The position numbers and the translations under genes are program-made. From Zygnema cylindricum (taxonomy: Eukaryota > Streptophyta > Zygnematophyceae > Zygnematales > Zygnemataceae): a stretch of 64,000 nt of DNA. Location: positions 41,001 through 105,000 of the forward strand of contig JBBHKE010001855.1 of the NCBI GenBank assembly GCA_037447655.1, in the 5' to 3' direction. Positions 8,290 to 29,665 of this stretch are shown in pieces (the first letter of the stretch is position 1; the number at the start of each line of letters is the position of its first letter). Under the pieces are notes generated by a model, which worked only from the letters and a program-made list of their open reading frames with translations, was not told the origin of the DNA and ran no database searches.

Positions 8290-8386
8290 CAGTACTGAAA
8301 AAGCCACATGCCCCCTTTGGTTAAAGAGGATAGGTGCTTAGGGTGGGGTACTTTCATAAAGGGATTTAGCTCCTCTATTGCGGTCA

Positions 8387-11893: not shown

Positions 11894-14800
11894 GGTCACG
11901 GGCCCGCCTTCACGAATTCCGGTCTTTGATGGACGTGAATATCTATATTGGGCAGATTTGGTTAAGTCTTACTTCAAGCAAGTGAAACTTATTGATGTGT
12001 TAAATGGATCATTGGCAGAATCTGATGCCAGTTTTGATCAGAAAAATGACCAGGCTTTGCATTTAGTAAAGCTTATGATATCAAAAGAATTGCATATGAC
12101 ATATATTAATGTTGCAAAGGCATCAGATTTGTGGGATGCATTGAAATCTTCTTATGTTAAAGCTAGTGACCAGCATGAGATTATAACTGCTGGTCAAATC
12201 TATGAGTATAAGTACACAGGTGGTAGCATGGTGGAATACACTAATCGGTTTCGAATGTTACTGTCAGAAAATGCATGTTCTGGGGGGACTTTCTCCCCTT
12301 ATCATCAGGCCATGATTCTCCTAAAGGGGCTTCCTAATGAATATAAAGGAGCCTCAGATGAAATGAAAAAATTGTCTAAACCTCTTTGGAATTTGCAAAC
12401 AGCTATAGAGTTTATCTTGGCAGAAGAGGCTACTCAGACAGTTTTAGGATTTGGAAAACCAGCTGTAGCATTTACGGCTCAGTTTCAGAGGGAAAATAGA
12501 TATCAAGGGAATCAGTTTAATCCTCAGTTTGAGAAATGTGTTTATTGCTATACTGATGGTCACTCCTTCAGAGCTTGTCCTTTGTATATAAAAGCTCTTG
12601 AAACAGGTACCTTTCGGAAAGGATGGAGACACCGCGGACCTCCCATTTCCCAAAAACCTCCGAATAAAATTGTTGCATTTTCAGCGGAGGATACGGAATT
12701 GGAGAAGAAAAAGACCGAGGAAACGACACCTGATGTGATCAGTTTTCCAAAAACTGATGACAAAGAGTTCTTTGCTCTCGCCAAACTCGACATGATGGAA
12801 GGAGAAAAGGACCTCGGATGGATAATGGATTCCGGCAGCTCTTCACACATGTGTTGGAACAAGTCTTGGTTTAAGGAAATGTCTTCTATTCCTTTACGTC
12901 AGATCTTTTATGCTTGTGGCTATGCTGTTGAATCAAATGCCAAAGGAAACATAGATCTCGATTGTGTGATAGATGGAAAGGTTGTTAAGAGAACTTTGTA
13001 TGATGTCTTGTATGTTCCAAAGTTCAAGAAAAATCTGTTTTCTACGTCAGTAGCTGAAAGCAAAGGCTTTGAGGTTCTCCAGAAAAATGGCAAGAAAATA
13101 GTGAGCAAGAATGGAAGAGTAGCTCTAGTAGGAACTAGAGGCCCAAACTTTTTGTACCGCATGGACCTGGCTAATAAAATTGATTTTGCGTACTCCAGTG
13201 TCCTATGTGATAATGTTTTGTGGCATAAAAGGCTTGGTCATGTGCACCATGAGAGACTTACTAAGATGATAAACCATAATATGATAGAGGGAGTCAAGCT
13301 TGGTCAAAAAGAGTCCCATGTTTGTGATGGTTGTGCTCTCGGAAAGCTTCACAAGCTTCCTCTACCACAAGTTTTTGATCATCGAGCCACAGATCTCCTT
13401 GGTATTATTCACTCTGATGTCTTCGGCCCTTCCAAAGTTCCCTCTCTTGGTAGCAGCCGCTTCTTTGTCACCTTTACAGACGATTACTCCCGATATAGTC
13501 GCCTATACTTCATGAAGGAGAAGGGAGAAGTCTTCACTCACTTTAAGCACTACAAAATCTGGGCGGAGAAACTTCACGGCAAATCTATTCTTGCTTTGCG
13601 AACGGATAATGGTGGAGAGTATGTATCTCATGCATTTGCTGATTTTTTGAAAGAGAATGGCATCTCTCGTGAATTTACTGCTCCGTACACACCGGAACAA
13701 AATGGTGTTGCCGAGAGACTTAATCGGACTTTGACTGAATGTGCTCGATCTATGATGGCCGATAAAGGTGTGGATCCAAAGTTTTGGGGGGAAGCTTTTC
13801 ATTGTGCTTCTTATATCAGAAATAGAGTGGAAACCCGGGCTGTTAGGGGTAAGACACCTTATGAAGTTTGGACAGGCAAAAAGCCAAATGTTAGTCATTT
13901 TAGAGTTTTTGGTAGCAAATGTTTTATCTTGGATAATCTTCCTAATTGGAAGCTTAGTCCAAAATCTGTACCTGGCGTCTTTTTAGGCTATGATGATGAA
14001 TCTGCAGGTTATAGAGTGTATAATCCTCAGAGAGGATGTCTTCAAACAGCCAGGAATATTCAGATTAAAGAAGAAAGTCAATCTGTTGATGTTTTTAGCA
14101 TGGATGCAGCTGAAAGGAAAGAGAAAATACAAGAGTATATCATTCTTGAGCAGGTACCTTTTACTCCATCCTCTTCTACTTCTTCTACCTCTCTCCCAAA
14201 TGCCTCTAGGCCGTCTAATACTCCTTCTGTCGATGCTCCTCCGAATACACGCCTTGTGCGGCAATCTAAGGAACCAACCGTTCCCGCGTCAGATTTTCCG
14301 GGGGGAAGAAGGCAAAGTAGCCGCCTTCGAGGCGACCGAGTTGAGAGTGCTTTTTCTACAAGCACAGGGGAGCCGCTTACTATTCATGAAGCTTTTTCCG
14401 TTCCTGAAAAGGATCATTGGATCTCGGCTGCAAATGAAGAGATAAAGTCAATTATGGAAGCCCAAACTTGGGAACTTGTGGAGCTCCCACCGAACAGGAA
14501 AGCTATCGGTTGTAAGTGGGTCTTCAAATTAAAATTGAATCCTGATAATACAATTGAGAGATATAAAGCTAGACTGGTTGCTAAGGGATTTAGCCAAAAG
14601 GAGGGAATTGACTATGAAGAGACCTTCTCTCCTGTGGTTCGCTTTCCTACTGTTAGAGTTTTGCTATCTCTTGCCGCAATAGAAGATATGGAATTGCATC
14701 AGATGGATGTTAAGACAGCTTTCTTGCATGGTGATTTGGAGGAAGTAATTTATATGAAGCAGCCAGAGATGTATGCAGAAAAAGGGAAAGAAAATCTGGT

Positions 14801-15947
14801 CTGTAAACTGTTGAAGTCCCTTTATGGTCTGAAACAGGCTCCGAGGCAATGGAACCTGAAATTAGATGAGTTTTTAACCAATCTAGGCTTTACCAGGATC
14901 AGTTCAGATCACTCAGTCTATGTAATGCAAGGTGATGATGGAGTGATTTATGTGGCAGTTTATGTAGATGATTTGCTACTAATTAGCAAATCCATCAATG
15001 AGATTAATAAAATAAAATCAGCTTTGAATTCCCGGTTTGAAATGAAAGACTTGGGTGAGGCTAAGTATATTCTAGGAATTCAAGTAGAAAGAGACAGGAA
15101 ACAGAAAATTATTTATTTAACTCAAAAGGAAGCAATCAAGAACATGTTAGAAAAGTTTGGCATGTCGGACGCAAAGGGGAGTGCCACTCCTATGGAATTC
15201 AGGCAGAAATTGGAAGGCACGGAAACGGATGGTGGTGTTTTGGTTGATGGTTTCTTAGATTCAGGGGAGGCAGATTCTATGTCCTCCATTCCTTACAGGC
15301 AGATTGTCGGAAGCCTCATTTATTTCATGAATTGTACTCGTCCCGACATCGCAGCAGCGGTTGGAGCCTTAAGCCGAAGCCTTCAGAATCCAAGGAAATC
15401 AGACTATGAGGCAGCAAAGAGAGTTCTTCGTTATCTTGCAGGAACTCAAAATCTTAGACTCTCTCTCGGTGGAGAGGAAGTCAAAATTCATACATGGAGC
15501 GATGCGAGCTACGGAGATATGCCGAGCCGACGCTCCACCACCGGATACATTTTGAAGATCGGAAGTGGAACTTGCTGCTGGAGCAGCAAACTTCAGAAGG
15601 TAACGGCTCAGTCTACCATGGAGGCTGAGTACATGGCTGCTAGCTCGGCAGTTAAAGAGTTACTTTGGGTAAAGTCTCTTCTCCAAGAGCTTCTCTTTAT
15701 GCAATCTGGACCACAGATAGTGTGGTGTGATAATCAGGCAGCAATCGCTATTGCATCTAATCCCAGTCATCACTTTAAGAGTAAGCACATTGATATCAAG
15801 CTACACTTTGTAAGAGAAAAGGTGATGGGAAAAGTCTTGAAGTTGAGTTATTTACCGAATGAGCAAATGGTGGCTGATATGATGACGAAACCCTTACCTG
15901 CTCCCAAATTGAAGTTTTGTAGAGAGGCATGTGGACTGAGTGACTAG
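11838..15947 (+). CDS. Copia B gag-pol polyprotein, intact
   Basis: An uninterrupted frame gives 1369 residues from the ATG at 11838. The frame is open upstream to 11682, but this start matches the family A gag start and precedes the conserved V-x-G-P-P-S motif. Order: Gag helical domain (about 30-210); zinc knuckle CVYCYTDGHSFRAC from residue 234 (C-X2-C-X4-H-X4-C); aspartic protease DSGSS at D331; HHCC finger (WHKRLGHVHH...CDGC, about 455-505); integrase triad D527, D590, E626 (62 and 35 residue spacings); RT (about 875-1120) with YVDD at 1042-1045; RNase H (about 1218-1350) with D1222 and the STMEAEYMA motif. All visible catalytic residues are kept and the length is usual for Ty1/copia. 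It would form virus-like particles, reverse-transcribe and integrate element copies. Whether it is expressed is unknown. Confidence 0.95.
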   Translation: MTTAASSSSSVPTLVSEQQVTGPPSRIPVFDGREYLYWADLVKSYFKQVKLIDVLNGSLAESDASFDQKNDQALHLVKLMISKELHMTYINVAKASDLWDALKSSYVKASDQHEIITAGQIYEYKYTGGSMVEYTNRFRMLLSENACSGGTFSPYHQAMILLKGLPNEYKGASDEMKKLSKPLWNLQTAIEFILAEEATQTVLGFGKPAVAFTAQFQRENRYQGNQFNPQFEKCVYCYTDGHSFRACPLYIKALETGTFRKGWRHRGPPISQKPPNKIVAFSAEDTELEKKKTEETTPDVISFPKTDDKEFFALAKLDMMEGEKDLGWIMDSGSSSHMCWNKSWFKEMSSIPLRQIFYACGYAVESNAKGNIDLDCVIDGKVVKRTLYDVLYVPKFKKNLFSTSVAESKGFEVLQKNGKKIVSKNGRVALVGTRGPNFLYRMDLANKIDFAYSSVLCDNVLWHKRLGHVHHERLTKMINHNMIEGVKLGQKESHVCDGCALGKLHKLPLPQVFDHRATDLLGIIHSDVFGPSKVPSLGSSRFFVTFTDDYSRYSRLYFMKEKGEVFTHFKHYKIWAEKLHGKSILALRTDNGGEYVSHAFADFLKENGISREFTAPYTPEQNGVAERLNRTLTECARSMMADKGVDPKFWGEAFHCASYIRNRVETRAVRGKTPYEVWTGKKPNVSHFRVFGSKCFILDNLPNWKLSPKSVPGVFLGYDDESAGYRVYNPQRGCLQTARNIQIKEESQSVDVFSMDAAERKEKIQEYIILEQVPFTPSSSTSSTSLPNASRPSNTPSVDAPPNTRLVRQSKEPTVPASDFPGGRRQSSRLRGDRVESAFSTSTGEPLTIHEAFSVPEKDHWISAANEEIKSIMEAQTWELVELPPNRKAIGCKWVFKLKLNPDNTIERYKARLVAKGFSQKEGIDYEETFSPVVRFPTVRVLLSLAAIEDMELHQMDVKTAFLHGDLEEVIYMKQPEMYAEKGKENLVCKLLKSLYGLKQAPRQWNLKLDEFLTNLGFTRISSDHSVYVMQGDDGVIYVAVYVDDLLLISKSINEINKIKSALNSRFEMKDLGEAKYILGIQVERDRKQKIIYLTQKEAIKNMLEKFGMSDAKGSATPMEFRQKLEGTETDGGVLVDGFLDSGEADSMSSIPYRQIVGSLIYFMNCTRPDIAAAVGALSRSLQNPRKSDYEAAKRVLRYLAGTQNLRLSLGGEEVKIHTWSDASYGDMPSRRSTTGYILKIGSGTCCWSSKLQKVTAQSTMEAEYMAASSAVKELLWVKSLLQELLFMQSGPQIVWCDNQAAIAIASNPSHHFKSKHIDIKLHFVREKVMGKVLKLSYLPNEQMVADMMTKPLPAPKLKFCREACGLSD
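11894..11906 (+). other. Presumed primer-binding site of copia B
   Basis: GGTCACGGGCCCG stands where family A has GGTTATGGGCCCA, with the same flanking protein context (Q-V-x-G-P-P-S). It has three mismatches to the initiator tRNA-Met anticodon arm. No other plausible site is seen after the LTR. Confidence 0.45.
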
Positions 15948-15954
15948 CAGAGTC

Positions 15955-15970
15955 TAAAGCTTTAGGGGAG
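15955..15970 (+). other. Polypurine tract of copia B
   Basis: A purine-rich run ending TTTAGGGGAG directly precedes the 3' LTR start TGTTG at 15971. It is partly interrupted by pyrimidines. Confidence 0.6.
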
Positions 15971-16230
15971 TGTTGTTTTTAGAAAGCTTTAGTCCTCTTT
16001 ATGCCTCAGCTGTGAGAGAGAGAGCTGTTCAGGACTTAAGCTATTTTTGGTTGAGTTCGGTTCAGTACTTACCGAAATTAGTGTGACAGTGAAGTTGGGA
16101 GTTCACGGTTCATTCACACTTGGGACACGTGTCGTCACTTGGGAGAATGCGTGAATATGTCCTCCGTGGACGTACGGAAATTCGGCAGGACCACTGGACT
16201 TCGTGAAGTCAATTCTACGGTGCCAAATCC
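15971..16230 (+). repeat. 3' LTR of copia B, truncated
   Basis: These 260 bp match 11154-11413 without a visible difference. After TGCCAAATCC the sequence changes to family A protease DNA on the other strand. The remaining 480 bp or so of the LTR and any target-site duplication are lost. Confidence 0.92.
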
Positions 16231-17446
16231 TTCTTATCTTAGTGAACAGGTGCCTATCCTTACACATGTGCATGGAGGCACCTGAATCTATGATCCAGCC
16301 TGCTTCACCTTTCAATCCACCGTAAGCACATTTCTGCCTTCGTGGAATTTCGACCTCGTTTTTCGCCTCCAATTCCTCATCCAAAAGGAGCACATCGTCC
16401 TCATCCTCGGATTCCACCTCATATACCTGTGTCACAAGGGCCTTTTTCTTTCCTCTCGAGGTACCACCGGTCTGCCCGTCCTTTAGCCGAAGCTCGGTTA
16501 GCTTAGTGCACTCTGCCATATAGTTCCCCGGTTTCTTACAAAAATGACATAAACCTTTGTGAGCCCTTTGTCCGAACTCGTCGGCCTGATTTTTCTGCTC
16601 CCTTCCCCCATAGTTTCCGACCAGTTTCCGAGAATCCTTGTTCCTCCTATCGGTCAAAGTTGCCAAGGCTCGGCCACTCTTTCCTCCCTTTTTGATCTCA
16701 ATCGTATTCTTCCGAACGAGAATCATCCCTACCACTGAGTTCCATATCCACCTTGAGTCCGGCAAGTCCTACACGCGATTGACTATGTTCTCGAACTCAT
16801 CGGGGAACTTCATCAGTAAATAGTTAACCTTTTCTTTTTCACTAAAATCTTTTCCCGCACTCTCCAGCTCCATGAAGAGTGTAGCAAGCTCATTGCAAAA
16901 ATCCAACATTTTCCCCCCTTTGTATACAAATTCCTTTACTTTCTGATCAGCCAACTGTTGTTGCTGAATCGTACCACTTCGGTACATCTCTATAAGAGCC
17001 ATCCACAGATCGGATGCCCTTTCTACATGCAAATGAGGACATGCAAGTCCTTGAGTAAGATGGTGAAGGATGAAGTGCTTTGCTGCCATATTGTTGAAAT
17101 CCCAGGTTTGAGTATCATTCTCCTTGTTCCTCGGAATAGGTGACATGAATGTTGAACTGGTTGCTATTGGTGTGGTCGTCTCCTTCTCCGCTCCATTGTC
17201 CACCACCTCTCCTTCCTTTATCTCCTCCGTTGAAGATGGACCTGCTTTCTTTGTGAATCTGCTTCCTTCAAACCCTGGAGGAATTTTGAGACTTGATGGA
17301 CGCCCCAATCTTCCACTCACTATCCCCCATAACATTTTTTCGCTTAGAGCTCCTATCATCATACTTTCCCAGTATATGAAGCCAGTTCCATTAAATATTG
17401 GTACCTTAGAGGGTGGGCCCATAACCCAAAACTCTGAGACCTCCAT
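16231..17446 (-). pseudogene. copia A2 gag and protease fragment
   Basis: Read on the minus strand from the ATG at 17446, inside the LTR. The N-terminus MEVSEFWVMGPPSKVP spans the LTR end and the primer-binding site. The Gag domain follows (FILHHLTQGLACPHLHVERA, then NYLLMKFPDEFENIVNRV near 16770), then a zinc knuckle CHFCKKPGNYMAEC with intact C-X2-C-X4-N-X4-C spacing but Asn for His. The protease motif WIIDSGASMHMC is intact near 16290. Stops near 16766 separate two long frames. Everything after protease is gone. It is the best reference here for what the A1 protease looked like before the microsatellite grew. Confidence 0.9.
17414..17426 (-). other. Primer-binding site of copia A2
   Basis: On the minus strand GGTTATGGGCCCA directly follows the LTR. 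It is a perfect match to the 13-nt complement of the initiator tRNA-Met anticodon arm and encodes V-M-G-P in gag. Confidence 0.78.
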
Positions 17447-18473
17447 AAGTCCTCATAGGGGACAGCTTCCAAGAAGCCTCTAGGATAACCCTGACCCCTT
17501 TGTGTTTCATCAAGAACAACTGCCACCCTGACAGACAAAAACTCTGACTAACGTCAACCCTGTGAAGGCAAGACTCCCTTGAATCGATAGCAAAAATAAT
17601 CTCTGAATTTGCTCCCCTGAGCAATAAGTTATGGAGGGTCAAAGTTGGCCATTTGTACAGAAGCTCTTTGGGAGAGAGGGTCCTATCTCCTAATTTTTCT
17701 AAGTCCTTTCGCTTTCACAGACTCTATCTACTGATGTACGGAGCCAATTAGATTACTCCTTGTCGGTATACTTTCTGTACGGACATTGTACGACATGGCG
17801 TAAAAGTCGACACGTGGTATCTCCGGATTGACTCCCTTAATCCTCGGAGATGTCGCGATCCAATGTCATTCCGCCACGTGTCATCCGATGTGGCGATGAT
17901 CAAAAACCGCCAAAATTATCTTCCGCTATCTCGGCGTTGAATTTCGACCGTCCGACTAAATTTACAATTAATCCTAGTCGTAATAAATACATGTCCGGTG
18001 TTCGTTTCGTAAAGAAATAAATGCGCGGTATTTGTTTCTTATACGTACCCTAATCCGTACTTTTACATTACTATATCTATGTCTCCCGTAAAACTATTTC
18101 AGTTAAATGAACTATCCTACGTATTAGTGTTTAATTAATTATCAATCCCTATAATACGTAACACTATCTCTAGACTTAACGGTTAGAGCTACCACCTACC
18201 GGCTGATTACCGGCCGGCAAGTTCCAGGATCAAATCTTGGATGCGGCACATATATTTTAGTAAATATATTCTAAATTATTAATAAACTAATATTTATATC
18301 CCGTAAACCTCTGGATAGCCTAGGTAGCCATGGCTCTAGCTTCCTCTCCAATTTCTCAGTGACTACGACAAGTTTGAGAGTTGGAGAGAGAAGTTAGAGG
18401 TAGACTGCCTCAACTTCTTTCTATATTTCTATTCAGACCTAGAAAATACTTTAAAAGACCATTAATTTCTACA
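17427..18473 (-). repeat. 5' LTR of copia A2
   Basis: The LTR is 1047 bp; on the minus strand it starts TGTAGAAATTAATG. The last two bases read TG where the other family A LTRs end in CA. It aligns with 20985-21996 and is the left partner in the duplication described for 17427-24729. Confidence 0.85.
18172..18250 (+). other. tRNA-like segment in the A2 LTR, antisense to the element
   Basis: A D-arm/A-box-like GGTTAGAGCT (18181) and a T-arm-like CCAGGATCAAATCTTGG (about 18224-18240) have roughly tRNA spacing. No full cloverleaf or acceptor stem is evident, so this is not called a tRNA gene. The same feature recurs at 21702, 47125 and 52508. Confidence 0.4.
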
Positions 18474-18489
18474 ACGATGACCTCACGGG

Positions 18490-19638
18490 TTGCGATATGG
18501 AGCCTCCAAAGGCTCATCATGCTCGAACATTTCTGTCTGGAGCCTGGAACATCGGAGTAGGGGACAGTCGCAGGAAACTCCGCTCTACCACATCCTCACA
18601 GAGAAAGGACAAACAGCTGATGGAACCAAAAGACCACAGCCGCAAGCCACAGGCCCTTTATCCTTCAAACCGCGAGCTATCTTTCAAAATAGTGACATTA
18701 GGCTGGGCCCAAAACTGACCCATCCGCCTCCTCCGGCTCTAAAGAAACTTCTTTATGGTTTAGAGGATTACAAGAAACCACAGCCGGAAAAGGATGCTTT
18801 GACCGCTGAAATAGATAAAGAATCGTTCAACCGATACTTGGCTGAAAAACCACTAACAGATCCACCAATTACACCTTCAACTAGGAATTCTGACGCAGAG
18901 AGTGAGGAAGAAGGGGGTAAGAAAAAGGAGAAATCGGAAGACGAGAACTCACCCATTTCATCGCCAAAAGCTCACCCTCCTTCCTCTCAACCGGCAGTTA
19001 TGCTAGTACGACATCTGATTCCCTACGCCCTGACTCATGTCACAACGCTAGCTTCCTTCTACAATTTGCCCGGAGAAATCCTCATCCAGGCACTGGGGGA
19101 AGAGATTCACACCAGGAGGGAAAGGGTCGCGTTGGCAGAACTACCCAAGACAGTCTTCATGTTGGCGAAAACGAAAACGTCTATGGCGGATACAGATTAT
19201 AAGGCCCCGTCGGTGGCTCTTATTCTTAACACAACAGGTAATTTTAAACTTAATGGATACGGCAGGTATCAAGATGTAGTGGTGGTTACCGGAGCCCTCC
19301 CTAATCTTATAACAATATCAGCGTTATAGCAAATGCCCAAGGAATTCAGGCAAAAAATCAGTCTAAGTGACATATGCCTGAGTACGGTCAGCAGTGGGAG
19401 CCAACCAGTATATGGCATCATTAAAGTAATGGAAATCGAATTTGCGGATGACACAAGCCAACACGTACAAATTCAGCTCCCTTTCCTCGTGGTGGAAGGA
19501 AAGAAATTTGAAATTATGTTGGGTATGGCTACGTGGACAAGGTTGAACATGGAGTTGAATATATGGAAGGAACAATTTACATTTCCACACCCGGAGGATC
19601 CGAAGAGCACCAAAGTGGTGGTTCCTTTGGATTTATGA
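18490..19638 (+). pseudogene. gypsy protease region, copy 1
   Basis: The frame 18490-19329 holds a proline-rich and then acidic/lysine-rich linker (SEEEGGKKKEKSEDE). It ends in a retropepsin core (GRYQDVVVVTGALPNLI near 19260-19310), a TAG stop at 19327, and the second half of the protease (PVYGIIKVMEIEF...LPFLVVEGKKFEIMLG, 19333-19638). Retropepsins of this group have D-T-G/S-G-A at the active site. Here the aspartate position reads Val (GTT), a one-base change from GAT. The linker may be the C-terminal end of Gag. Copy 2 has the same Val, so the change came before the duplication. Confidence 0.75.
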
Positions 19639-19917
19639 AACTGGGGGAAAACAACTTTTCCGGTGTCTAGATGCTATCTTGTGTACTCTGCATCAACGCC
19701 TTCGGAGCTGTTCGAAGACTCCACCGTTATCGCTGATTCCATCTAGCAATTCCCAATATCCAAGCGGTGGGAAATAAAGTGTCAAAACAGATTGGTACAA
19801 GCCACACTTCGATGGGAAGTGGACAAGAGCTTTGCCGCCATATCACCCAAGAAAACAAAGTTCATCCAGTCAGAACTTCCAACAGTTCTTAACAAAGGGT
19901 AGGACTTCAACTGAAAA

Positions 19918-20925
19918 GTGATGTCACTAGAGATCCCGCCCTCAAGACTAAGAATTCTATCGTTATTCTTGTGCATTAGTTCCAACTTGGAAGCCGTCCT
20001 AATAGTTGGATACCAAGTAGAAACATACTCAGCAGTCGAGATTGACTCAGACGCCCGTGTAGTCAATGAGTATCGAATGCAACAGCTGCACCAACTTTAC
20101 CCACAGCAACTCTCGGTGTTTGCCATGTCTAACTCTCACCGCACGCTTCCCCAGAATGTGTACAACATCATGGATTCACATTTGGAGAAGCTTGGAATGG
20201 TAGATCTAGTGGTCGCTAGATGGCCTTGCCAGGGGTATTCGTTAGCGGGACAAGGCAAAGGACACCAGAATGTCAGTAGCATAACATTTTTTCAGATGAC
20301 TCGAGTGATACCAGGGTTACAAGAACGCTAGGACACACCTGTGGGGTGCGTTTTGGAAAATGTTCACCCCACATATGATAAAAGGAAACAAGTGGTCAAA
20401 TTAGAACGAAGTGACCAAGGATCTGGGAACTCCAATAGTGTTTGATACAGCTCAGATCGGATTAAGAGCCCACAGAGTTCGGGTTTATTGGACCAACTTC
20501 GTTCCTCTTCCCATCCTCCACCAGCTGTTGAAAACAAAGGTTCCGGATCCAAACATCACATTTTAACGGATTCTCAGACCAGGGCGAATGGCTATCCTGT
20601 GACCACAGCCGACCGAGCACCCTTTTTCTGTTGCAATAAATCCGGAAATACAGGGAAGGCCCTACAAACCTGGTATCTTTCCATAACAGCCATGCTTATC
20701 GGAAAGGTGTACCAGGGATGATCTTTCACAGTACGCCCGCTACGTGAAAACACTAAGTATTAAGGAACGCGAACGAACAATGGGATTTTGACCGGCAACC
20801 ACAACAGCACCAAGGGTCTCAGCCTCAAATAGGTGCAGTTTAATTTGGAAACGTATGGATTTGAATGCAATTTCATGGGTATTGCAACAATTTGAGGCAT
20901 TCTCCAGCCTCTTGTCTCCAAAATC
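19918..20925 (+). pseudogene. C5-cytosine DNA methyltransferase domain in gypsy pol, copy 1
   Basis: The domain would methylate cytosine in DNA using S-adenosylmethionine. Motifs occur in canonical order. Motif I is a degenerate ILSLFLCISSNLEAV (about 19951), its Gly-rich loop lost. Motif II is YSAVEIDSDARVV. Motif IV is DLVVARWPCQGYSLAG with the catalytic Cys codon at 20227-20229. A GKGHQN...FFQMTRVIPGLQ helix follows, then motif VI CVLENV (20347-20364) and motif VIII GLRAHRVRVYWTNF (20459-20500). C-terminal elements are KERERTMGF near 20760 and a motif X-like RCSLI...MDLNAISWVLQ near 20840-20890. Stops at 20329 (TAG), 20563 and 20605 and a frameshift near 20405 kill it. The span of about 330 residues is a whole catalytic domain. 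It lies between protease and RT, so it was part of the element's polyprotein. The subfamily (DNMT1/CMT-like or DNMT3/DRM-like) is not settled. Confidence 0.85.
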
Positions 20926-20984
20926 ATAGACAAAATACCTTGAAGCTCCACAGTTGTTGGCCATGCAAGCGACTCTAAAGCTTG

Positions 20985-21996
20985 AGGGGAGGATAACCCT
21001 ACCCTTTGTGTTTCAGCAAAAACAACTGCCACCCTGACAGATAAAAACTCTGACCAACTTCACCTTGTGAAGGTAAGACTCCCTTGAGTCGATAGCAAAA
21101 AAAATCTCTGAATTTGCTCCCCTGAGTAGTAAATTAGGGAGGGTCAAAGTTGACATTTTGTATAGAAGCTCTCTGGGAGAGAGGGTCGTATCTCCTAATT
21201 TTTCTAAGTTCTATCTCTCTCACAGACTCTATCTATTGATGTACGGAGCCAATCAGATTACTCCTCCGTACACAAAAGTACAACTGTCAGTGTACTTTCT
21301 GTACGGAAATTGTACGACATGGCCTAAATGTCGACACGTGGTATCTCCGAATTGGCTCCCTTAATCCTCGGAGATGCCGCGATCCAATGTCATTCCGCCA
21401 CGTGTCATCTGATATGGCGATGATCAAAAACCGCAGAAATTCTCTTCCGCGATCTCGACGTTGAATTTCGGCCGTCCGACTAAATTTACATTTAATCGTA
21501 GCCGTAATAAATTCATGCCCGGTATTCGTTTCGTAAAGAAATAAATGCGCGGTATTCGTTTCTTATACGTACCGTAATCCGTGCTTTTACATTACTGGAT
21601 CTATGTCTCACGTAAAACTATTTACGTTAAATGAACTATGCTACGTATTAGTAATTAATTAATTATCAATCCCTATAATACGTAACACTATCTCTAGACT
21701 TAACGGTTAGAGCTACCACCTACCGGCTGATTACCAGCCGACAAGTTCCAGGATCAAATCTTGGAGGCGGCACATATATTTTAGTAAATATATTCTAAAT
21801 TATAAATAAACTAATATTTATATCCCGTAAACCTCTGGATAGCCTAGGTAGCCATGGCTCTAGCTCCCTCTCCAATTTCTCAGTGATTGCGACAAGTTTG
21901 AGAGTTGGAGAGAGAAGTTAGAGGTAGACTGCCTCGGCTTCTTTCTATATTTCTATTCAGACCTAGAAAAGACTTTAAAAGACCATTAATTTCTAC
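20985..21996 (-). repeat. Recombinant family A LTR between the duplicated segments
   Basis: It starts after the shared junction GCTTGAGGGGAGGATAACCC and ends TTAATTTCTACA, like the A2 LTR. It lacks the U5 end that carries the gag start. A tRNA-like segment lies at 21702-21775. Confidence 0.85.
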
Positions 21997-22012
21997 AATG
22001 ATGACCTCACGG

Positions 22013-23167
22013 GTTGCGATATGGAGCCTCCAAAGGCTCATCATGCTCGAACATTTCTGTCTGGAGCCTGAGAACGTCAGGGAGGTAGGGGGGACAGTCG
22101 CAGGCAACTCCGCTCTACCACATCCTCACAGAGAAAGGACAAACAGCTGATGGAACCAAAGGACCACAGCCGCAAGCCACAAGCCCTTTATCCTTCAAAC
22201 CGCGAGCTATCTTTCAAAATAGTGACATTAGGCTGGGCCCAAATCTGACCCATCCGCCTCCTCCGGCTCTAAGAAACTTCCTTATGCTTTAGAGGATTAC
22301 AAGAAACCACAGCCGGAAAAGGATGCTTCGACCGCTGAAATAGATAAAGAATGGTTCGACCGATACTTGGCTAAAAAACCACTAACAGATCCACTAATTA
22401 CACCTTCAACAAGGAATTTTGACGCAGAGAGTGAGGAAAAAGGGGGTAAGAAAAAGGAGAAATCGGAAGACGAGGACTCACCCATTTCATCTCCCAAAGC
22501 TCACCCTCCTTCCTCTCAACCAGTAGTTATGCTAGTACGGCATCTGATTCCCTACGCCCTGACTCACGTCACAACGCTAACTTCCTTCTACAATTTGCCC
22601 GGAGAAATCCTCATCCAGGCACTGGGGGAAGAGATTCACACCAGGAGGGAAAGGGTCGCGTTGGCAGAACTACCCAAGACAGTCTTCATGTTGGCGAAAA
22701 CAAAAACGACTATGGCGGATACAGATTATAAGACCCTGTCGGTGGCTCTTATTCTTAACAAGACAGGTAATTTTAAACTTAATAAATACGGCAGGTATCA
22801 AGATGTAGTGGTGGTTACCGGAGCTCTCCCTAACCTTATAACAATATCAGCATTATAGCAAATGCCCAAGGAATTCAGGCAAAAAATCAGTCTAAGTGAC
22901 ATATGCCTGAGTACGGTCAGCAGTGGGAGCCAACCAGTATATGGCATCATTAAAGTAATGGAAATCGAATTTGCGGATGACACAAGCCAACACGTACAAA
23001 TTCAGCTCCCTTTCCTCGTGGTGGAAGGAAAGAAATTTGAAATTATGTTGGGTATGGCTACGTGGACAAGGTTGAACATGGAGTTGAATATATGGAAGGA
23101 ACAATTTACATTTCCACACCCGGAGGATCCCAAGAGCACCAAAGTGGTGGTTCCTTTGGATTTATGA
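22013..23167 (+). pseudogene. gypsy protease region, copy 2
   Basis: Duplicate of 18490-19638. The 101-residue second half (22862-23167) is identical in translation to copy 1. The first half carries a small indel near 22070-22090 and several substitutions. The active-site Val for Asp and the TAG after ITISAL are shared with copy 1. Confidence 0.78.
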
Positions 23168-23440
23168 AACTGGGGGAAAACAACTTTTCCGGTGTCTAGA
23201 TGCTATCTTGTGTACTCTGCATCAACGCCTTCGGAGCTGTTCGAAGACTCCACCGTTATCGCTGATTCCATCTAGCAATTCCCAATATCCAAGCGGTGGG
23301 AAATAAAGTGTCAAAACAGATTGGTACCACTTCGACGGGAAGTGGACAAGAGCTTTGCCGCTATACCACCCAAGAAAACAAAGTTCATCTGGTCAGAACT
23401 TCCAACAGTTCCTAACAAAGGGTAGGACTTCAGCTGACAA

Positions 23441-24448
23441 GTGATGTCACTGGAGATCCCGCCCTCAAGACTAAGAATTCTATCGTTATTCTTGTGCATT
23501 AGTTCCAACTTGGAAGCCGTCCTAATAGTTGGATACCAAGTAGAAACATACTCAGCAGTCGAGATTGACTCAGACGCCCGTGTAGTCAATGACTATCGAC
23601 TGCAACAGCTGCACCAACTTTACCCACAGCAACTCTCGGTGTTTGCCATGTCTAACTCTCACCGCACGCTTCCCCACAATGTGTACAACATCATGGATTC
23701 ACATTTGGAGAAGCTTGGAATGGTAGATCTAGTGGTCGCTAGATGGCCTTGCCAGGGGTATTCGTTAGCGGGACAGGGCAAAGGACACCAGAATGTCGGT
23801 AGCATAACATTTTTTCAGATGACTCGAGTGATACCAGGGTTACAAGAACGCTAGGACACACCTGTGGGGTGCGTTTTGGAAAATGTTCACCCCACATATG
23901 ATAAAAGGAAACAAGTGGTCAAATTAGAACGAAGTGACCAAGGATCTGGGAACTCCAATAGTGTTTGATACAGCTCAGATCGGATTAAGAGCCCACAGAG
24001 TTCGGGTTTATTGGACCAACTTCGTTCCTCTTCCCATCCTCCACCAGCTGTTGAAAACAAAGGTTCCGGATCCAAACATCACATTTTAACGGATTCTCAG
24101 ACCAGGGCGAATGGCTATCCTGTGACCACAGCCGACCGAGCACCCTTTTTCTGTTGCAATAAATCCGGAAATACAGGGAAGGCCCTACAAACCTGGTATC
24201 TTTCCATAACAGCCATGCTTATCGGAAAGGTGTACCAGGGATGATCTTTAACAGTACGCCCGCTACGTGAAAACACTAAGTATTAAGGAACGCGAACGAA
24301 CAATGGGATTTTGACCGGCAACCACAACAGCACCAAGGGTCTCAGCCTCAAATAGGTGCAGTTTAATTTGGAAACGTATGGATTTGAATGCAATTTCATG
24401 GGTATTGCAACAATTTGAGGCATTCTCCAGCCTCTTGTCTCCAAAATC
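23441..24448 (+). pseudogene. C5-cytosine DNA methyltransferase domain in gypsy pol, copy 2
   Basis: Duplicate of 19918-20925 with the same motif order: a degenerate motif I, YSAVEIDSDARVV, WPCQGYSLAG with the catalytic Cys codon at 23750-23752, CVLENV, AHRVRVYWTNF and KERERTMGF. It differs by only a few residues (for example VNDYRLQQ for VNEYRMQQ). It shares the TAG after LQER, the later stops and the frameshift, so the domain was already dead when duplicated. This copy is the one directly upstream of the RT segment. Confidence 0.85.
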
Positions 24449-24507
24449 ATAGACAAAATACCTTGAAGCTCCACAGTTGTTGGCCATGCAAGCGACTCTA
24501 AAGCTTG

Positions 24508-24729
24508 AGGGGAGGATAACCCTACCCTTTGTGTTTCAGCAAAAACAACTGCCACCCTGACAGATAAAAACTCTGACCAACTTCACCTTGTGAAGGTAAG
24601 ACTCCCTTGAGTCGATAGCAAAAAAAATCTCTGAATTTGCTCCCCTGAGTAGTAAGTTAGGGAGGGTCAAAGTTGACATTTTGTACAGAAGCTCTCTAGG
24701 AGAGAGGGTCGTATCTCCTAATTTTTCTA
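24508..24729 (-). repeat. Family A LTR fragment at the right edge of the duplication
   Basis: About 220 bp match 20985-21206 and then stop. A CTTGAGGGG motif occurs on both sides of the fragment (about 24501 and 24732). It may be a target or microhomology repeat left when the fragment was inserted. Confidence 0.8.
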
Positions 24730-27700
24730 AACTTGAGGGGGGGAGAGAGACAAGAAGGGGAAAATTCACCAAATTACATTTACATAACACACTGAACCTA
24801 GGAGTTTCCTCAATGGGGGGGAGCAGAGGCTCAAAATAGAGCAGCTTGGGGGAAGTTGTCAACAGCAGCGCTTTAGCAACCGAGCAAGGGAAAGATCCAT
24901 AGGTAGAGCTTAAATTCGACATCTCCCTTAGGGGTCGTCCACAGGAAGCATTGGCGGCATTGGAACTTGGAAAGATGGACTGGACTCTAGGGGAACAGCT
25001 AGACCCACATCAAAAGGCCCAGCTCTCCAAGCTGTTAGAGGAGAACGGGCAAGTGTTTTTTTGGATTGACATAGATGTAGGGATATATAATGGGACCGTT
25101 TTTCAGATTGACCTGACCTACGAGATAGCAACTATTTGGCTGAAACAGTACCCTCTCAACTTCAAGGAGTAGGAGTTCATCACCGCGAACGTGCAGACTT
25201 TGGTGGACGCAGGGTAGGTGCAAGAAAGTACAGGGCTACAAGGGTTTGCCTCTCCAACTGTGCTCCCACCAAAGAAAGACTCCTCCGCAAAAACTATAGA
25301 TTTTCGAATGTGTGGGGAAAACCGAATGTTGAACGTGGCAACTGTCTCCGACAGTTATCGAATGCCCACCCGGAAGAGATCTTCGACTCTCTTGCTGGGG
25401 CCACCATTTATTCTACGTTGGATATGAAGAATGGATTCCATTTGATTGCTATGGAGCCGAAGCACCGAAAGAGGAACGCTTTTTGGGTAGGATCTTATTT
25501 GTATGAATAGCTATACATGTCTTTTGGCCTCAAAAATGCACCTGCCAAATTCCAACAAGCCATGGACGAGGCCCTCCAGGGAATCGATTGCCCACGGTGT
25601 TACATTGACGATGTGATCATTTTCTCCTAGACCTTCGAGGAACACTTAGAGCATATACAGATTGTTATCTTGGCTCTCTAAGCACCGCGCTTCAAGTGTC
25701 ACCAAGGGGAAGGGCATTTTTTGTGTGCAGAAAATCATTTATCAGGGTCATGAGGTGACTCTTGGGACAATGGATCACCACATGGTTAAGGTGGCAGCTC
25801 TTGACGCCCTTCCTCCTCTGCATGACATTTCTGCTCTTCGCACTTTCCTGGGCCTAGCCAACTATTACAGGAGGTTTATTCCCGAATTTAGTAGCCACGC
25901 CTAGCCACTGAATTAATTACTGCGAAAAGATCAAGAGTGGCGGTGGGCGGAAGAACAGCAGACTGCTTTCCAATTCCTGAAATATTCCTTCAAGCAACAT
26001 CTTGTGCTCCGAATGCCCAATCACTAGCGGCTTTTCCTCCTTTGTACTGATTGGAGCAGGTTCGGATTAAGAGCAATTTTGGCTCAATTAGACGATGCAC
26101 GGGTTGAGTACGTAGTGGCCTACGCAAGCCGGAGTAGTAACAGAGCCGAGGGGAATTACGGCAGTTACTATAGGGAATTACTCGCCGCAGTGTGGGTTAT
26201 CTAGCATTTTAGGCCTTACCTCTATGGAGTACACTTCACCCTTATTTTTGATCACTAACCCCTCAAATGGATAATGGAGAACACTAAGTTGACCAGCAAG
26301 CTAGCCAAATGGGTTCTCATCTTGCAGGAATATGATTTCAGCATCATCCACCGAGCCACGAAGATCCATGGGAATGTAGACGGACTCAACATGAATCCAG
26401 ACCCTTCAACCAGAGACTCTACTGGGGGTTGGCACGATGAGGACCCTAAACTCAGCCTGGGACTTATCCGGGCTTCCTTTGCCTTTATTTAGCTGCCTCG
26501 AGCTAAAGGGGAACTGTTAACTTTTGTTGCAGACATGGAGGAGCAGGCCCCCATTGGAGCCGGCCGCAAGGATATTAGGAATTTACCCCGATTCACTTTA
26601 GTCCATCCAAAAACGTTCCCATCTTCCCCACCTGGCAGAAATTCACTTGTCCGTGTTTAGACCCAAATAGCGGTGTATGAATGGGATCGAGGCATTCTTC
26701 TCAAGAAATGGGTCGATGGGACAAGGAAAATGGTTCCTCCTCCGGTAGAGCGTGAAACCCTCATTGTTCGTCTTCACCAGCAATGCGAGCACTTCAGACA
26801 AAAACGGACCACCTCCCTGGTCACAGGGTCGTACTGGTGGAATGGGTTTCGGGCTCAGGTAAATCGTGTGGTGCAGACGTGCCATTCTTGTGACCGGGTG
26901 AATGCGGCTTTGGACAAAAAAGGTGGAACGGAACTTCACTCCCTCCCCATCCGACGGATGTATTACAGATGGTCACTTGATCTGCTGGGACCACTTCCAA
27001 CCAACCGGAGGGGAAACCGTTTTGTCTTGGTAATGATTGAACACTTCTCCAAATGGATCGAATTGGTGGTTCCCCTCGGAAGGAGCCCAAAGCAATCGCG
27101 TACGCCTTCTTGCAGAGAGTGATGTCTCAATTTCGAGCACCGGCCGAAATTCTCACTGATCACGGGTCTTATTTTGCCTGCGAATTTTTTAACCTTTTGT
27201 AGAAGTGCCTCATTGACCACCGGTTGACCAGCCGAGACCACCCACAAGACGACGGCTTGGCCGAAAGGTGCGTACAGACAGTGAAACGGTCACTACAGAA
27301 ATATGCAGTTGAAGAGGATTTGGGGGAATGAACAAACGGGTGCCTTTGATTGCCATGGCATACAGTTTCAGTAAGTAGGCCTCCCTCCATTCACATAGCC
27401 CTTACTTCATTCTCTTTGGCTGACATCCCATCATACTTGGAGCTGCATCAGCTCAGGCGGTTATACTTTCGGAGATTGACAATCGGAGGACTATGGAGAA
27501 ACTGATTGCCGACAAGGCCAAGGTATTTCACCTGGAAATACCTTTGGCTATGGGCAATTTACAGGGTGCTCAGCTCCGAGATCAACTTTGGTATTCCCAA
27601 CACAAGAGCGACAACTATATCCCTCGTCAACGACAATTCATGCCTGCGATTTTGTGTATCGCATGCAACAAAAGAATGACACTTTGGACATTTCGGCCAG

Positions 27701-28028
27701 ACAAGTGATTATGAAAGTAGTGGAGGTCTTTAACAAAGGGGTTCTGACCATGGAAGGGAAAGATAGCCGCAAAATTAAAGAGAATCAGATCAATGTGGCT
27801 TCTTGCCATCTAAAAGGGCTAAAGGACAAACCCACTTTCCACCTCACTTACTTTACAAATCCACTCCCATGTTCCTCTGCCTGCAATGTGTCCTCTTCAC
27901 CCTGCCTCATGTTGGTGTGTGAACACTGTCACCAAGGGTGGCCTGACTTCTACCTGCTGCTGCACTTGGGAGCGTCTCACTCAACCCGCAAATCCGTGGT
28001 ACTGTGGGGACGCGAATTTGGCGGCTAA
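24730..28028 (+). pseudogene. gypsy pol remnant: RT, RNase H, integrase, PHD-like tail
   Basis: Many short frames together give a Ty3/gypsy pol. RT begins near 25080 (SPTVLPPKKDSS, then IYSTLDMKNGFHLIAMEPKH and YMSFGLKNAPAKFQQAMDEA) and has YIDD at 25601-25612. RNase H lies at about 26035-26330 (CTDWSRFGLRAILAQ, YYRELLAAVW, IMENTKLTSKLAKW). Integrase has an H2C2 finger near 26770-26905 (LHQQCEHF...CHSCDRV) and the triad D (26979), D (27158) and E (27263). A GVLTMEGKDSRKIKENQ segment near 27740 is the usual linker after integrase. At least a dozen stops, mostly TAG or TAA at positions expected to be Trp or Gln, and several frameshifts disable it. The methyltransferase segment lies directly upstream, apart from a small LTR fragment. 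Confidence 0.9.
27860..28010 (+). pseudogene. PHD-finger-like segment at the end of gypsy pol
   Basis: After the integrase C-terminal linker the sequence reads PCSSACNVSSSPCLMLVCEHCHQGW. One frame over it continues with a TCCCTWERLTQPANPWYCGD-type segment. The MLVCEHCHQGW core, preceding Cys residues and a following Trp-Tyr-Cys match the C4HC3 layout of PHD fingers. One frameshift and a lost final Cys are needed to explain the present state. PHD fingers bind histone H3 tails. At this position many gypsy elements carry a chromodomain. The call is by pattern and position only. Confidence 0.6.
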
Positions 28029-28071
28029 TTTGTCTTATCCACTTAGTTACGCGGGACTAAGTCGGGTGGGG

Positions 28072-28273
28072 ATTTGGGGGGGTACGGGGTACTTTTATTT
28101 TTCACTTGCTCCCTCATTATTACCCATGCATATCCTTGGAGAGAAGGGACAGAGAAGGGCATGGTCACGCATCCGCGGACGCATCAGCATTTGGGGGTGG
28201 ATCGCTGGTATCTCATGCACACCTCCTCGGACATCTCACCTAAATCTCACAGTTCCCATGCACGCTCGACAAC
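28072..28273 (+). repeat. Direct repeat flanking the gypsy 3' LTR, left copy
   Basis: About 200 bp, starting with a G-run (ATTTGGGGGGGTACGGG), recur at 29464-29665. The G-run could be a polypurine tract. If so, the true LTR start would lie near 28083 and the 5' LTR would be truncated. Confidence 0.8.
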
Positions 28274-29460
28274 TGTCAAGCTCGTGTGCTTTCTAGGCAC
28301 ATATCTACGCCTAGAATTTTCGTCGCCTCATTCCAACATGTACGGACCCCAGCGTACGGGGAAGGGGAGAACAAGCAAGTGGATCAAATCCTTGTATTTT
28401 CACCTAAGAGCACAACGCACTTAAGTTCACCTCAACCGGAGTTCCAACAGCGGAGTTAGTCCGTTGCAAAGATGGCGGCTCCATGACATGGCATCTATTC
28501 TATATAGCTCTAACGGAGGGGTATATTTTGGTAAATCACGTAACCTTTAGGATTGTCATGTAGATTCTGCTGTTAGCCGTCAATAGGATGTTAGTTCAGG
28601 CCCAACAGACTAGCAGAGCATTTATGACGTTGGGTCAAAGTTAAGCGGTTTCGCGTGAATTTAGGGCTTTGTTGCCCATTAGTGTACCATAAAAGGACCT
28701 TTGGCTGCAAATCTAGCCGGAACCAGTCGCCTAAGTTTTTGCCTTGAGTGTAATACAACCTGTTTTGTCTTATGTCAGTACGATAACAATTGTTGGTTGT
28801 TGATTGGCTTCTGGGATTGCTTTGACTTTGGCACCTGCAGTAGGACAAACCTTGGTTTTATAAGGCACTTGGGGCCAAAGTAGACAGGGCTTTTTCAGTA
28901 CTGTCTCTTGAGAAAACCCCAAGAGAATCGAATCAATCTTTTTGTTGGAGAATTGTTGCATTGTATCGTGGACTCTATTGCCTTCTTTGTTTTGGATTGT
29001 CTTTTGTGGAAATCGTAGCTCGGTTGGGTGGTTAGCACTAACCTCTTTTTGGGCGGTTCGGACTTTCACTATTTGAAACTGAGAAGAGTCTGGTCGGATC
29101 CGTACCGCGAAACCGAGGGGTGAGGGAGAATCATATCTGTGTTCGGGGCAATTGGGATAGGCTTCATCTTCAAAGTTTTGTCATTGTTGCACTTCGGGGT
29201 ATGTTAGCTTGCCTCGCTATTTTCATTGATTTCTATCTTTATTTCTATTCTCTGGGGCAAGGTGATATTCTTTAATCTGAAAGATCCAATTTTTATTGTT
29301 TTTCTATATTTTTGCACGTAGGTATTTGCGCACTGTTGTGTTCGTCCTTGGTTCTTGTCCAGAGTTCTTGTGGGTCGGATTTGACGACCCGCATTCCCTT
29401 TTCTATTCTTTGGAGAGTGCTCAGGGGTGTAGCATTTAGTGGGCTTCCGGTGGATCAACA
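28274..29460 (+). repeat. 3' LTR of the gypsy element
   Basis: It aligns with 7112-8289 (TGTCAAGCTCG...ATCAACA), length about 1.19 kb, with many substitutions. A TATAAGG candidate is at 28859-28865. Confidence 0.8.
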
Positions 29461-29463
29461 CAA

Positions 29464-29665
29464 ATTTGGGGGGGTACGGGGCTCTTTTCTTTTTCACTTG
29501 CTCCCTCATTATTACCCAATCATATCATTAGGGGTGAAGGGAAAGAGAAGGGCATGGTCACGACTCCGGGGACGCATCAGCATATGGGGGTGGATCGCAG
29601 GTCTCTCGTGCACACCTCCTCGGACATCTCACCTAAACCTCACGGTTCACAGCCACGCTCGACAT
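29464..29665 (+). repeat. Direct repeat flanking the gypsy 3' LTR, right copy
   Basis: Matches 28072-28273 and stops at CACGCTCGACA, where unrelated DNA begins. It is either the start of a second truncated LTR or a tandem copy of the element's end. Confidence 0.78.

What the first reader, a model, noticed from the sequence alone, without database searches (positions are those of the whole stretch)
18474..28028. A Ty3/gypsy retrotransposon that carried its own C5-cytosine DNA methyltransferase and a PHD-like finger
Between protease and RT the element has a whole methyltransferase domain with WPCQG (motif IV), LENV (VI), AHRVRVYW (VIII) and ERERTMGF in order. After integrase it has an MLVCEHCHQGW finger core. 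Known (as I recall): captured methyltransferases have been reported in some retrotransposons of dinoflagellates and of the charophyte Klebsormidium. Inference: this lineage could have methylated its own or host DNA and read histone marks, helping it hide or target insertion. The PHD partner is the less described part.
Basis: partly seen in the sequence, partly recalled or inferred. Interest (0 to 1): 0.92.

Follow-up and report, generated by a model that had tools for sequence, protein, structure and literature searches.

The report
Retrotransposon carrying DNA methyltransferase and PHD finger
A jumping gene, dead in this stretch but intact elsewhere in the same genome, carries its own DNA-methylating enzyme and a histone-reading type of finger, and its split end repeats suggest that it inserts from a circular copy; the type was first described in one alga, and here relatives turn up in several green algae and a liverwort.

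Summary
The window copy is a dead Ty3/gypsy-type element at 7112-29664, flanked by TACT repeats (reader: 18474-28028). Its protease-methyltransferase part is duplicated in tandem and frameshifted, its PHD is broken, and a young copia element sits in gag. Open relatives in the same genome carry a DNMT3-type methyltransferase between protease and RT, and a PHD finger after integrase, both under purifying selection. Closest known: KnitGypsy-Dnmt3 of Klebsormidium (de Mendoza 2018), same domain and same A-coding-B-A-B repeat layout. New here: (1) the PHD partner, absent from that paper's main text; (2) a wide family (110 of 120 listed relatives found by integrase+PHD have both domains); (3) a rooted RT tree with all sampled carriers on one side and one move of the methyltransferase from before RT to after RNase H; (4) TG..CA ends with 4-bp target duplications in 5 of 6 elements with both ends located, a conserved internal CA-NN-TG junction (241 exact copies; spacer 2 bp in all 100 listed) and variable A|B joints. 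I infer that the integrase opens a two-LTR circle at that junction. Self-methylation and histone targeting remain inferred. Host unnamed.

The parts
7112..29664 (+). whole element including nested insertions and a tandem duplication; 4-bp target duplication TACT at 7108-7111 and 29665-29668
7112..8291 (+). repeat A1 (left terminal repeat, begins TG)
   Evidence: 86% identical to A2 at 28274-29462
9622..11148 (+). gag remnant (4 stops)
   Evidence: tblastn with the relative's gag ORF P0003, 50% identity
11154..16231 (+). nested Ty1/copia element (foreign to the finding); LTRs 11154-11414 and 15971-16231, 100% identical
17429..18475 (-). piece of another repeat; first part of the tandem unit
   Evidence: matches L021 in reverse
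18916..19743 (+). protease region, copy 1
   Evidence: 79% identity to P0004 over 276 residues; P0004 matches Asp_protease_2 at E 2e-4, 22.3 bits against a cut-off of 24.3
19747..20989 (+). DNMT3-type methyltransferase, copy 1, split over frames 1 and 2 with stops
20990..24512 (+). tandem duplicate of 17482-20989 (protease 22445-23272, methyltransferase 23276-24512)
   Evidence: 95.8% identity
24729..28011 (+). RT, RNase H, integrase and PHD tail, frameshifted
27909..28028 (+). broken PHD-like finger (MLVCEHCHQGW core; second half in another frame)
28029..28071 (+). stretch between the pol stop and B1 that ends in a G-rich, polypurine-tract-like run
   Evidence: sequence; G runs at the same place in most of the 20 relatives printed
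28072..28271 (+). repeat B1, ends CA
   Evidence: 89% identical to B2
28272..28273 (+). 2-bp spacer (AC) of the internal CA-NN-TG junction
   Evidence: 241 exact copies of the related junction core in the genome (the window's own core differs slightly)
28274..29463 (+). repeat A2, begins TG
29464..29664 (+). repeat B2 (right terminal repeat, ends CA)

Best explanation
The window holds a dead member of a family of Ty3/gypsy-type retrotransposons that long ago took a DNMT3-type methyltransferase into pol and keeps a PHD finger behind the integrase. SHOWN in relatives: one polyprotein gag-PR-MTase-RT-RH-INT-PHD (or gag apart), the added domains under purifying selection; termini A-coding-B-A-B; TG..CA outer ends; 4-bp target duplications; a constant internal B-CA-NN-TG-A junction; variable A|B joints. 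INFERRED: reverse transcription makes a linear DNA with terminal repeats [B-NN-A], because a polypurine-like tract lies just before B1 and the A1 end is followed by unique sequence; its ends are joined to a two-LTR circle (hence the variable A|B joints); the integrase cuts the other, palindrome-like CA-NN-TG junction of one repeat, drops the 2 bp and inserts the opened circle, which gives exactly A-coding-B-A-B with a 4-bp duplication. INFERRED with less certainty: the PHD, of the kind closest to readers of H3 tails unmodified at K4, tethers the integrase complex to chromatin of that state; the methyltransferase acts on the element's own DNA, circle or fresh insertion, in cis, so that new copies are quiet at once and harm the host less.
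Against: C1374: the outer ends as I paired them, 16.5 kb apart, carry no matching duplication, and in 2 of 5 further elements A1 was not found in the 1.2-kb stretch fetched. 10 of 30 junction loci show no downstream B copy. Joints were compared only in the 9 copies that fit two search patterns, and mutation after insertion can add to their variety. No CpG deficit special to MTase-bearing elements: o/e 0.60-0.92 against 0.53 (copia), 0.62 and 1.21 (other Ty3). Motif IV reads ECQ instead of PCQ in 68 of 143 MTases, so activity is uncertain there. In de Mendoza 2018 the Klebsormidium MTase gave no methylation in yeast, which the authors call inconclusive. I did not identify a primer-binding site. 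Nothing here measures circles, methylation or histone binding.
Confidence: 0.6

Rival explanations
1. The split repeats are templated as proposed for DIRS/PAT elements: the RNA runs through A2 into B2, and internal B1-A2 serves as splint that restores the ends and closes the circle. The circle is the same, but the A|B joint is inherited and the B2|A1 joint is the new one.
For: Same repeat order as DIRS elements, as stated for KnitGypsy-Dnmt3 (legend); the internal B|A junction is constant.
Against: A|B joints differ between related copies, which templating does not predict; a polypurine-like tract abuts B1, as a U3 start would; the integrase is of the DDE type and duplications are 4 bp, not a tyrosine recombinase.
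Confidence: 0.2
2. The methyltransferase does not act on the element but on host DNA or RNA (change of the host methylome, or defence of the cell against viruses), and is kept for that.
For: Morozov et al. (PMC6338049, two of four parts read) speculate on antiviral use of transposon methylases; many copies in this genome.
Against: The domain sits inside pol and is constrained among replicating copies; no evidence here for effects on other DNA.
Confidence: 0.15
3. Methyltransferase and PHD are passengers without activity, kept as structural parts of the polyprotein.
For: The motif IV proline is often replaced; the finger departs from C4HC3 in part of the family, for example P0002, and P0005 gave no PHD match.
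Against: Motif IV Cys, ENx and HRxR found together in 120 of 143 (pattern match); purifying selection; 110 of 120 listed relatives keep both domains.
Confidence: 0.12
4. Independent captures of DNMT3 by the two architectures (before RT; between RNase H and integrase) rather than one capture and one move.
For: The MTase tree was rooted only on one distant DNMT3A fragment, so it cannot test single origin; no cellular algal DNMT3 was found for the tree; P0060 is incongruent between trees and P0042 unresolved in the MTase tree.
Against: RT tree: all sampled carriers on one side of the root branch, 100/99, and the RNase H-MTase-INT type on one branch, 100/99, inside the other; MTase and RT trees otherwise split alike.
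Confidence: 0.2

Closest known systems
KnitGypsy-Dnmt3 of Klebsormidium nitens (de Mendoza et al. 2018, PMC5890265; seen: parts 1 and 2 of the text, sections 9 and 10, and passages)
   Same: DNMT3-type methyltransferase in the pol ORF of an LTR Gypsy element; purifying selection; repeats laid out like a DIRS element (legend of Fig. 4c); the Klebsormidium record KFL_009030040 groups with the 'before RT' rows
   Different: PHD not mentioned in its main text (0 occurrences; figures and supplements not seen); described there as acquired in the K. nitens lineage, while here Klebsormidium and named chlorophytes (RT and MTase trees) and Marchantia (MTase tree) fall in one group; ends, target duplications, junction and joints are new here
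SymbioDIRS-Dnmt3 and SymbioLINE-Dnmt of Symbiodinium (same paper)
   Same: C5-methyltransferase captured by a retrotransposon; de novo CG methylation shown in yeast for the DIRS type
   Different: tyrosine-recombinase or LINE elements of dinoflagellates; 'PHD' has 0 occurrences in the main text
Chromoviruses (Ty3/gypsy with C-terminal chromodomain)
   Same: a chromatin-reader domain behind the integrase, thought to steer integration
   Different: reader is a PHD finger, plus an enzyme of the kind that writes DNA methylation; one relative (P0037) has PHD and chromodomain
Ectocarpus Gypsy elements with chromodomain or Tudor domain (PMC12477816, passages)
   Same: C-terminal chromatin readers in algal Gypsy elements
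   Different: 'PHD' has 0 occurrences in its main text, and the methyltransferase it mentions sits in a Sola1 DNA transposon
PHD fingers in other transposons: Ginger1-9_HM, a DNA transposon with Gypsy-like integrase (PMC2836005, passages), and CR1-like LINEs (title in a reference list)
   Same: PHD finger in a mobile element, in Ginger1 also C-terminal to a Gypsy-like integrase
   Different: no reverse transcriptase (Ginger1) or no integrase (LINE); no methyltransferase reported in what I saw
PAT-like DIRS elements (split direct repeats; recalled)
   Same: A-coding-B-A-B repeats, presumed circular intermediate
   Different: here a DDE integrase with TG..CA ends and 4-bp target duplication instead of a tyrosine recombinase

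Membership tests
Ty3/gypsy-type retroelements (by pol) | RT closest to Ty3; order PR-RT-RNase H-DDE integrase | tested here: met
   Ty3 RT is the best PDB match, 1e-74; RVT_1, RT_RNaseH, Integrase_H2C2, rve in order, protease weak
Conventional LTR retrotransposon termini | one simple direct repeat at each end | tested here: not met
   A-coding-B-A-B instead
KnitGypsy-Dnmt3 kind | DNMT3-type methyltransferase inside the pol ORF of a Gypsy element | tested here: met
KnitGypsy-Dnmt3 kind | DIRS-like repeat order (legend of Fig. 4c) | tested here: met
   C1344 and the window copy; B-A-B in 20 of 30 junction loci, 15 seen whole
KnitGypsy-Dnmt3 kind | groups with the Klebsormidium record in RT and MTase trees | tested here: met
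   P0034 lies among the 'before RT' rows; it stands, weakly supported, beside the other type
DIRS/PAT | tyrosine recombinase | tested here: not met
   no such Pfam hit in 3 pol ORFs; rve integrase instead
DNMT3 methyltransferases | catalytic domain of DNMT3 type without the rearranged motif order of DRM | tested here: met
   motifs IV, VI, VIII, then the ERE..MGF region in order; best PDB and fold matches DNMT3A/B. DRM2 matches only in one part
DNMT3 methyltransferases | methylates cytosine in DNA | not testable with these tools
   no assay; motif IV ECQ in 68 of 143
PHD fingers | C4HC3 zinc ligands | tested here: met
   P0001 E 1.5e-9; 128 of 135 fingers, two of the 135 from this genome. Broken in the window copy; P0002 departs from the pattern
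PHD fingers that read H3K4me0 | acidic residue before the first Cys and no aromatic cage | tested here: inconclusive
   best matches PHF12, Lid, BAZ2B, WSTF, PHF21A; acidic residue within 3 before the first Cys in 88 of 128; the cage was not counted; the reading of these proteins as K4me0 readers is recalled
Chromoviruses | chromodomain | tested here: not met
   no chromodomain hit in 3 pol ORFs

The most novel reading that the evidence does not exclude
A retrotransposon lineage with a DDE integrase that does not insert the ends of its linear cDNA but a two-LTR circle, a form that is a dead end for retroviruses (recalled), which its integrase opens at a conserved palindrome-like CA-NN-TG site inside the repeat; the same lineage carries a writer of DNA methylation and a histone-reading type of finger on its integrase, from one capture that is either older than the split of the listed green hosts or was spread between them, with one later move of the methyltransferase within pol.
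Probability: 0.5. Interest if true: 0.87.

Novelty: new variant of a known kind. Interest (0 to 1): 0.74.

Why it matters
It turns a one-alga curiosity into a large family in which a selfish element carries both a likely writer of DNA methylation and a likely reader of histone tails, so that 'why would a transposon methylate DNA' can be tested by comparing relatives with and without each domain. The split repeats with canonical integrase ends make a circular integration substrate for a DDE-integrase retroelement directly testable.

Tried and rejected
Host identity: not settled. Rfam SSU, PsaA/B (86, 89, 91, 93, 95, 97, 101, 103) and LHC (132, 133) searches did not complete; RuBisCO large subunit was answered with no match, so the plastid contigs, if the host has a plastid, are probably not in the assembly. 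The importin-alpha exon at 61987-62397 matches PDB importins but names no host. Rfam on the window: no match. Leads to a green host, none decisive: every organism that I saw named among the relatives is green, and C/T differences between A1 and A2 of the window are commonest at CHG (0.181) and CG (0.124) against CHH (0.067), which suggests plant-like CG+CHG methylation of the dead copy.

Self-methylation scar: CpG o/e shows no deficit special to these elements; rejected as evidence. Viral source of the methyltransferase: no relative in IMG/VR by pattern and tblastn (25 stretches matched a pattern, none confirmed); viral fold matches (best E 5e-13) are weaker than DNMT3. Cellular DNMT3 outgroups: one search returned 18 proteins, none of them named as a cellular DNMT3, so the origin of the domain could not be rooted. 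P0060: its MTase (a 166-residue match) sits with the other architecture while its RT does not; left unexplained. Selection test used only copies without stops: of L001-L016 (15 distinct places, as L006 and L012 are one), 5 methyltransferase copies of one family and 3 of the other; pairs with pS of 0.02 or less were dropped, and pS is saturated (about 0.8-0.9) in the wider pairs, so pN/pS there overstates dN/dS.

Considered and dropped: a chance motif match; the methyltransferase as a later insertion (same frame as RT in open copies); DNMT1/CMT type (no such chain among the 57).

Literature: (10 searches); in their listings I found no paper on a PHD finger joined with a methyltransferase in an LTR element, and one search had 0 hits. 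The library lacks most subscription journals. Seen: PMC5890265 parts 1 and 2, sections 9 and 10 and passages; PMC6338049 two of four parts and passages; passages only of PMC12344493 (which says that DNMT3 members sit in LTR Copia and DIRS elements), PMC12477816, PMC2836005, PMC5408684, PMC3350952 and PMC8226300; the rest as search listings. Recalled, from no call: DIRS/PAT replication models, the H3K4me0 reading of these PHD proteins, the fate of retroviral two-LTR circles, that the motif IV proline is nearly invariant, that 4onj is a DRM, and that Chrzof1 means Chromochloris.


Full report
WHAT IS IN THE WINDOW. The window lies in a 352.8-Mb assembly, contig C1392. The reported motifs are all there; the methyltransferase ones occur twice. 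Self-comparison shows why: 17482-20990 is repeated at 20990-24513 with 95.8% identity, so protease and methyltransferase are present in tandem, the methyltransferase split over two frames in each. The element is larger than reported. A 1.2-kb repeat (A) lies at 7112-8291 and again at 28274-29463, 86% alike; a 0.2-kb repeat (B) lies at 28072-28271 and 29464-29664; TACT stands just outside both ends. Order: A1, gag (9622-11148), a nested young copia element (11154-16231, LTRs identical), a piece of another repeat, protease, methyltransferase, the duplicate unit, RT, RNase H, integrase, PHD tail, a G-rich run, B1, 2 bp, A2, B2. With 14% divergence between the A repeats the insertion is old, and its frames are broken.

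OPEN RELATIVES. A PF00145 search of the whole genome scored 123 of 782 candidates, all 123 at E of 1e-3 or better, some in open frames of up to 2395 aa; the window copy is not among the places listed. Eight were fetched and three pol ORFs scanned. P0001 (contig C1344) is a single open frame of 2395 aa: zinc knuckle and protease (weak, 0.009 and 0.012, under the cut-offs), DNA_methylase (2e-11), RT, RNase H, integrase, PHD (1.5e-9). P0002 (C544) and the C1374 copy have gag apart and pol ORFs of 1525 and 1520 aa with DNA_methylase (2e-11, 8e-13) and PHD hits under the cut-off (2.4e-4, 4.4e-3). The window copy is 79-83% identical in nucleotides over pol to the C1374 and C544 copies.

THE PHD. The finger of P0001 matches PHF12 (6e-17), Lid, BAZ2B, WSTF and PHF21A in the PDB. 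Of 135 fingers (two of them from this genome) 128 have all eight zinc ligands in order; P0002 is among the 7 that do not. Fingers of several of these proteins are known (recalled) to prefer H3 tails unmethylated at K4.

SELECTION. Among copies without stops, pN/pS is 0.13-0.28 for the methyltransferase (14 pairs printed, 12 distinct, as L006 and L012 are the same place), 0.06-0.10 for RT (6 pairs), 0.07-0.11 for integrase (5 pairs; 0.70 in a sixth pair with very few differences), 0.11-0.17 for the PHD tail (9 pairs; 0.29 in a tenth, near-identical pair). In the wider pairs pS is saturated, so these are upper values. Both added domains are constrained, somewhat less than RT and integrase.

HOW WIDE. 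A search with the methyltransferase region of P0002 gave 38 proteins, including three Marchantia records and Klebsormidium KFL_009030040. Of the 27 with an integrase match, 22 have a PHD match, 23 by the profile; the Klebsormidium record is partial and ends before that point. A search with integrase plus PHD of P0001, which does not select for the methyltransferase, gave 261 proteins; of the 120 listed, 110 have methyltransferase and PHD, 8 PHD without methyltransferase, 2 methyltransferase without PHD.

TWO ARCHITECTURES. In 16 of the 153 proteins at hand (2 of them from this genome) the methyltransferase lies before RT; in 112 between RNase H and integrase. RT and methyltransferase trees both separate the two groups, except that P0060 changes sides and P0042 is unresolved in the methyltransferase tree. 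With three other Ty3 elements as outgroup (two from this genome, one yeast Ty3) all 36 sampled family members (29 carriers, 7 without methyltransferase) lie on one side (100/99), and the 'after RNase H' type, with 6 of the 7 that lack the domain, is one branch (100/99) inside the 'before RT' type. So the simplest reading is one capture, one move, and some losses. Caveats: all members came from searches with this family, the outgroup is small, the 'before RT' rows are poorly resolved, and no cellular algal DNMT3 was available, so a second capture is not excluded; nor is spread between hosts.

ENDS AND REPEATS. The C1344 element has A (931 bp, 100% identical copies), coding, B (243 bp), A, B; outer ends TG..CA; target duplication TTGG; the internal junction reads ..CACGACA-GC-TGTCATG... 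A search for that junction with 0-8 bp of free spacer found 241 exact places (reversed control: 4), and all 100 listed have exactly 2 bp. Of 30 such loci, 20 show B again downstream (15 in full, all 15 ending in CA; 5 cut off by the end of the stretch), 10 do not, and 21 have integrase/PHD coding upstream. The spacer is GC in 17 of 30 loci, GT or AC in 12 and CG in 1; GT and AC are the C-to-T products of GC on either strand, here in CHG context. Four-bp duplications TTGG, GACA, GTGG, CCAT and TACT flank 5 elements; C1374 as paired shows none; in two more the left end was not found. A G run stands just before B1 in most of the copies printed. The A2|B2 joint varies: 5 forms in 6 copies of one subfamily, 3 in 3 of another, these 9 being the copies that fit two search patterns.

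MECHANISM. With the G-rich tract before B1, and transcription that starts and ends in A (assumed), ordinary retroviral-type replication gives linear [B-A]-coding-[B-A]. Integrated copies are not that. They are what results if the two ends are joined (making the A|B joint, new and imprecise each time) and the circle is opened at one of the two B|A junctions (constant, because copied from RNA). The integrase would cut after CA on both strands, lose 2 bp, and insert with a 4-bp duplication. I know of no described case for a DDE-integrase retroelement, but one search was the only literature search on this point. The DIRS-like layout itself was noted for KnitGypsy-Dnmt3 in a figure legend. The PHD at the integrase C-terminus, where chromoviruses have a chromodomain, most simply steers integration. 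The methyltransferase travels in the same polyprotein and most simply acts on the element's own DNA. Neither was measured; the yeast test of the Klebsormidium domain was negative and called inconclusive, and CpG content gives no support. The dead window copy shows C/T differences most often at CHG and CG sites, as expected if the host methylates it in plant fashion.

KNOWN AND NEW. By methyltransferase type, place in pol, repeat layout and trees this is the same kind as KnitGypsy-Dnmt3. PHD fingers are known from other transposons, such as Ginger1 DNA transposons with a Gypsy-like integrase. New variant: the PHD partner of the methyltransferase, the spread over green algae and a liverwort, one RT group with a move of the methyltransferase, and the ends, target duplications, junction and joints.

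Noticed in passing
window 11154-16231: Young Ty1/copia element (LTRs of 261 bp, identical; open 1421-aa ORF) inserted in the gag of the old element.
   Followed up: partly
window 61987-62397 (+): Last exon of an importin-alpha-like host gene (Arm_3 E 6.6e-22).
   Followed up: partly
P0037 (2306 aa): A relative with PHD and chromodomain together behind the integrase, plus the methyltransferase.
   Followed up: no
143 methyltransferase domains of the family: Motif IV reads ECQ instead of PCQ in 68 of 143, in both architectures; the catalytic Cys stays.
   Followed up: partly
P0007, P0015, P0020 (Marchantia): ORFs with a gag-like and protease-like part and methyltransferase but no RT match in the same record; could be degraded elements, a two-ORF layout, or a domesticated gene (P0007: a cluster of 18 member sequences).
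   Followed up: no
G000:C961:71386-71685: RT_RNaseH_2 match inside an open frame of 5743 aa, very long for a Ty3 element; possibly a nested or fused pair.
   Followed up: no
P0044 and P0047 (Haematococcus): Best PHD match lies at the N-terminal side, before RT, unlike the other relatives at hand.
   Followed up: no
internal junction, 30 loci L027-L056: Spacer GC is replaced by GT or AC in 12 of 30, C-to-T changes within CAGCTG, a CHG site; fits plant-like CHG methylation in the host.
   Followed up: partly
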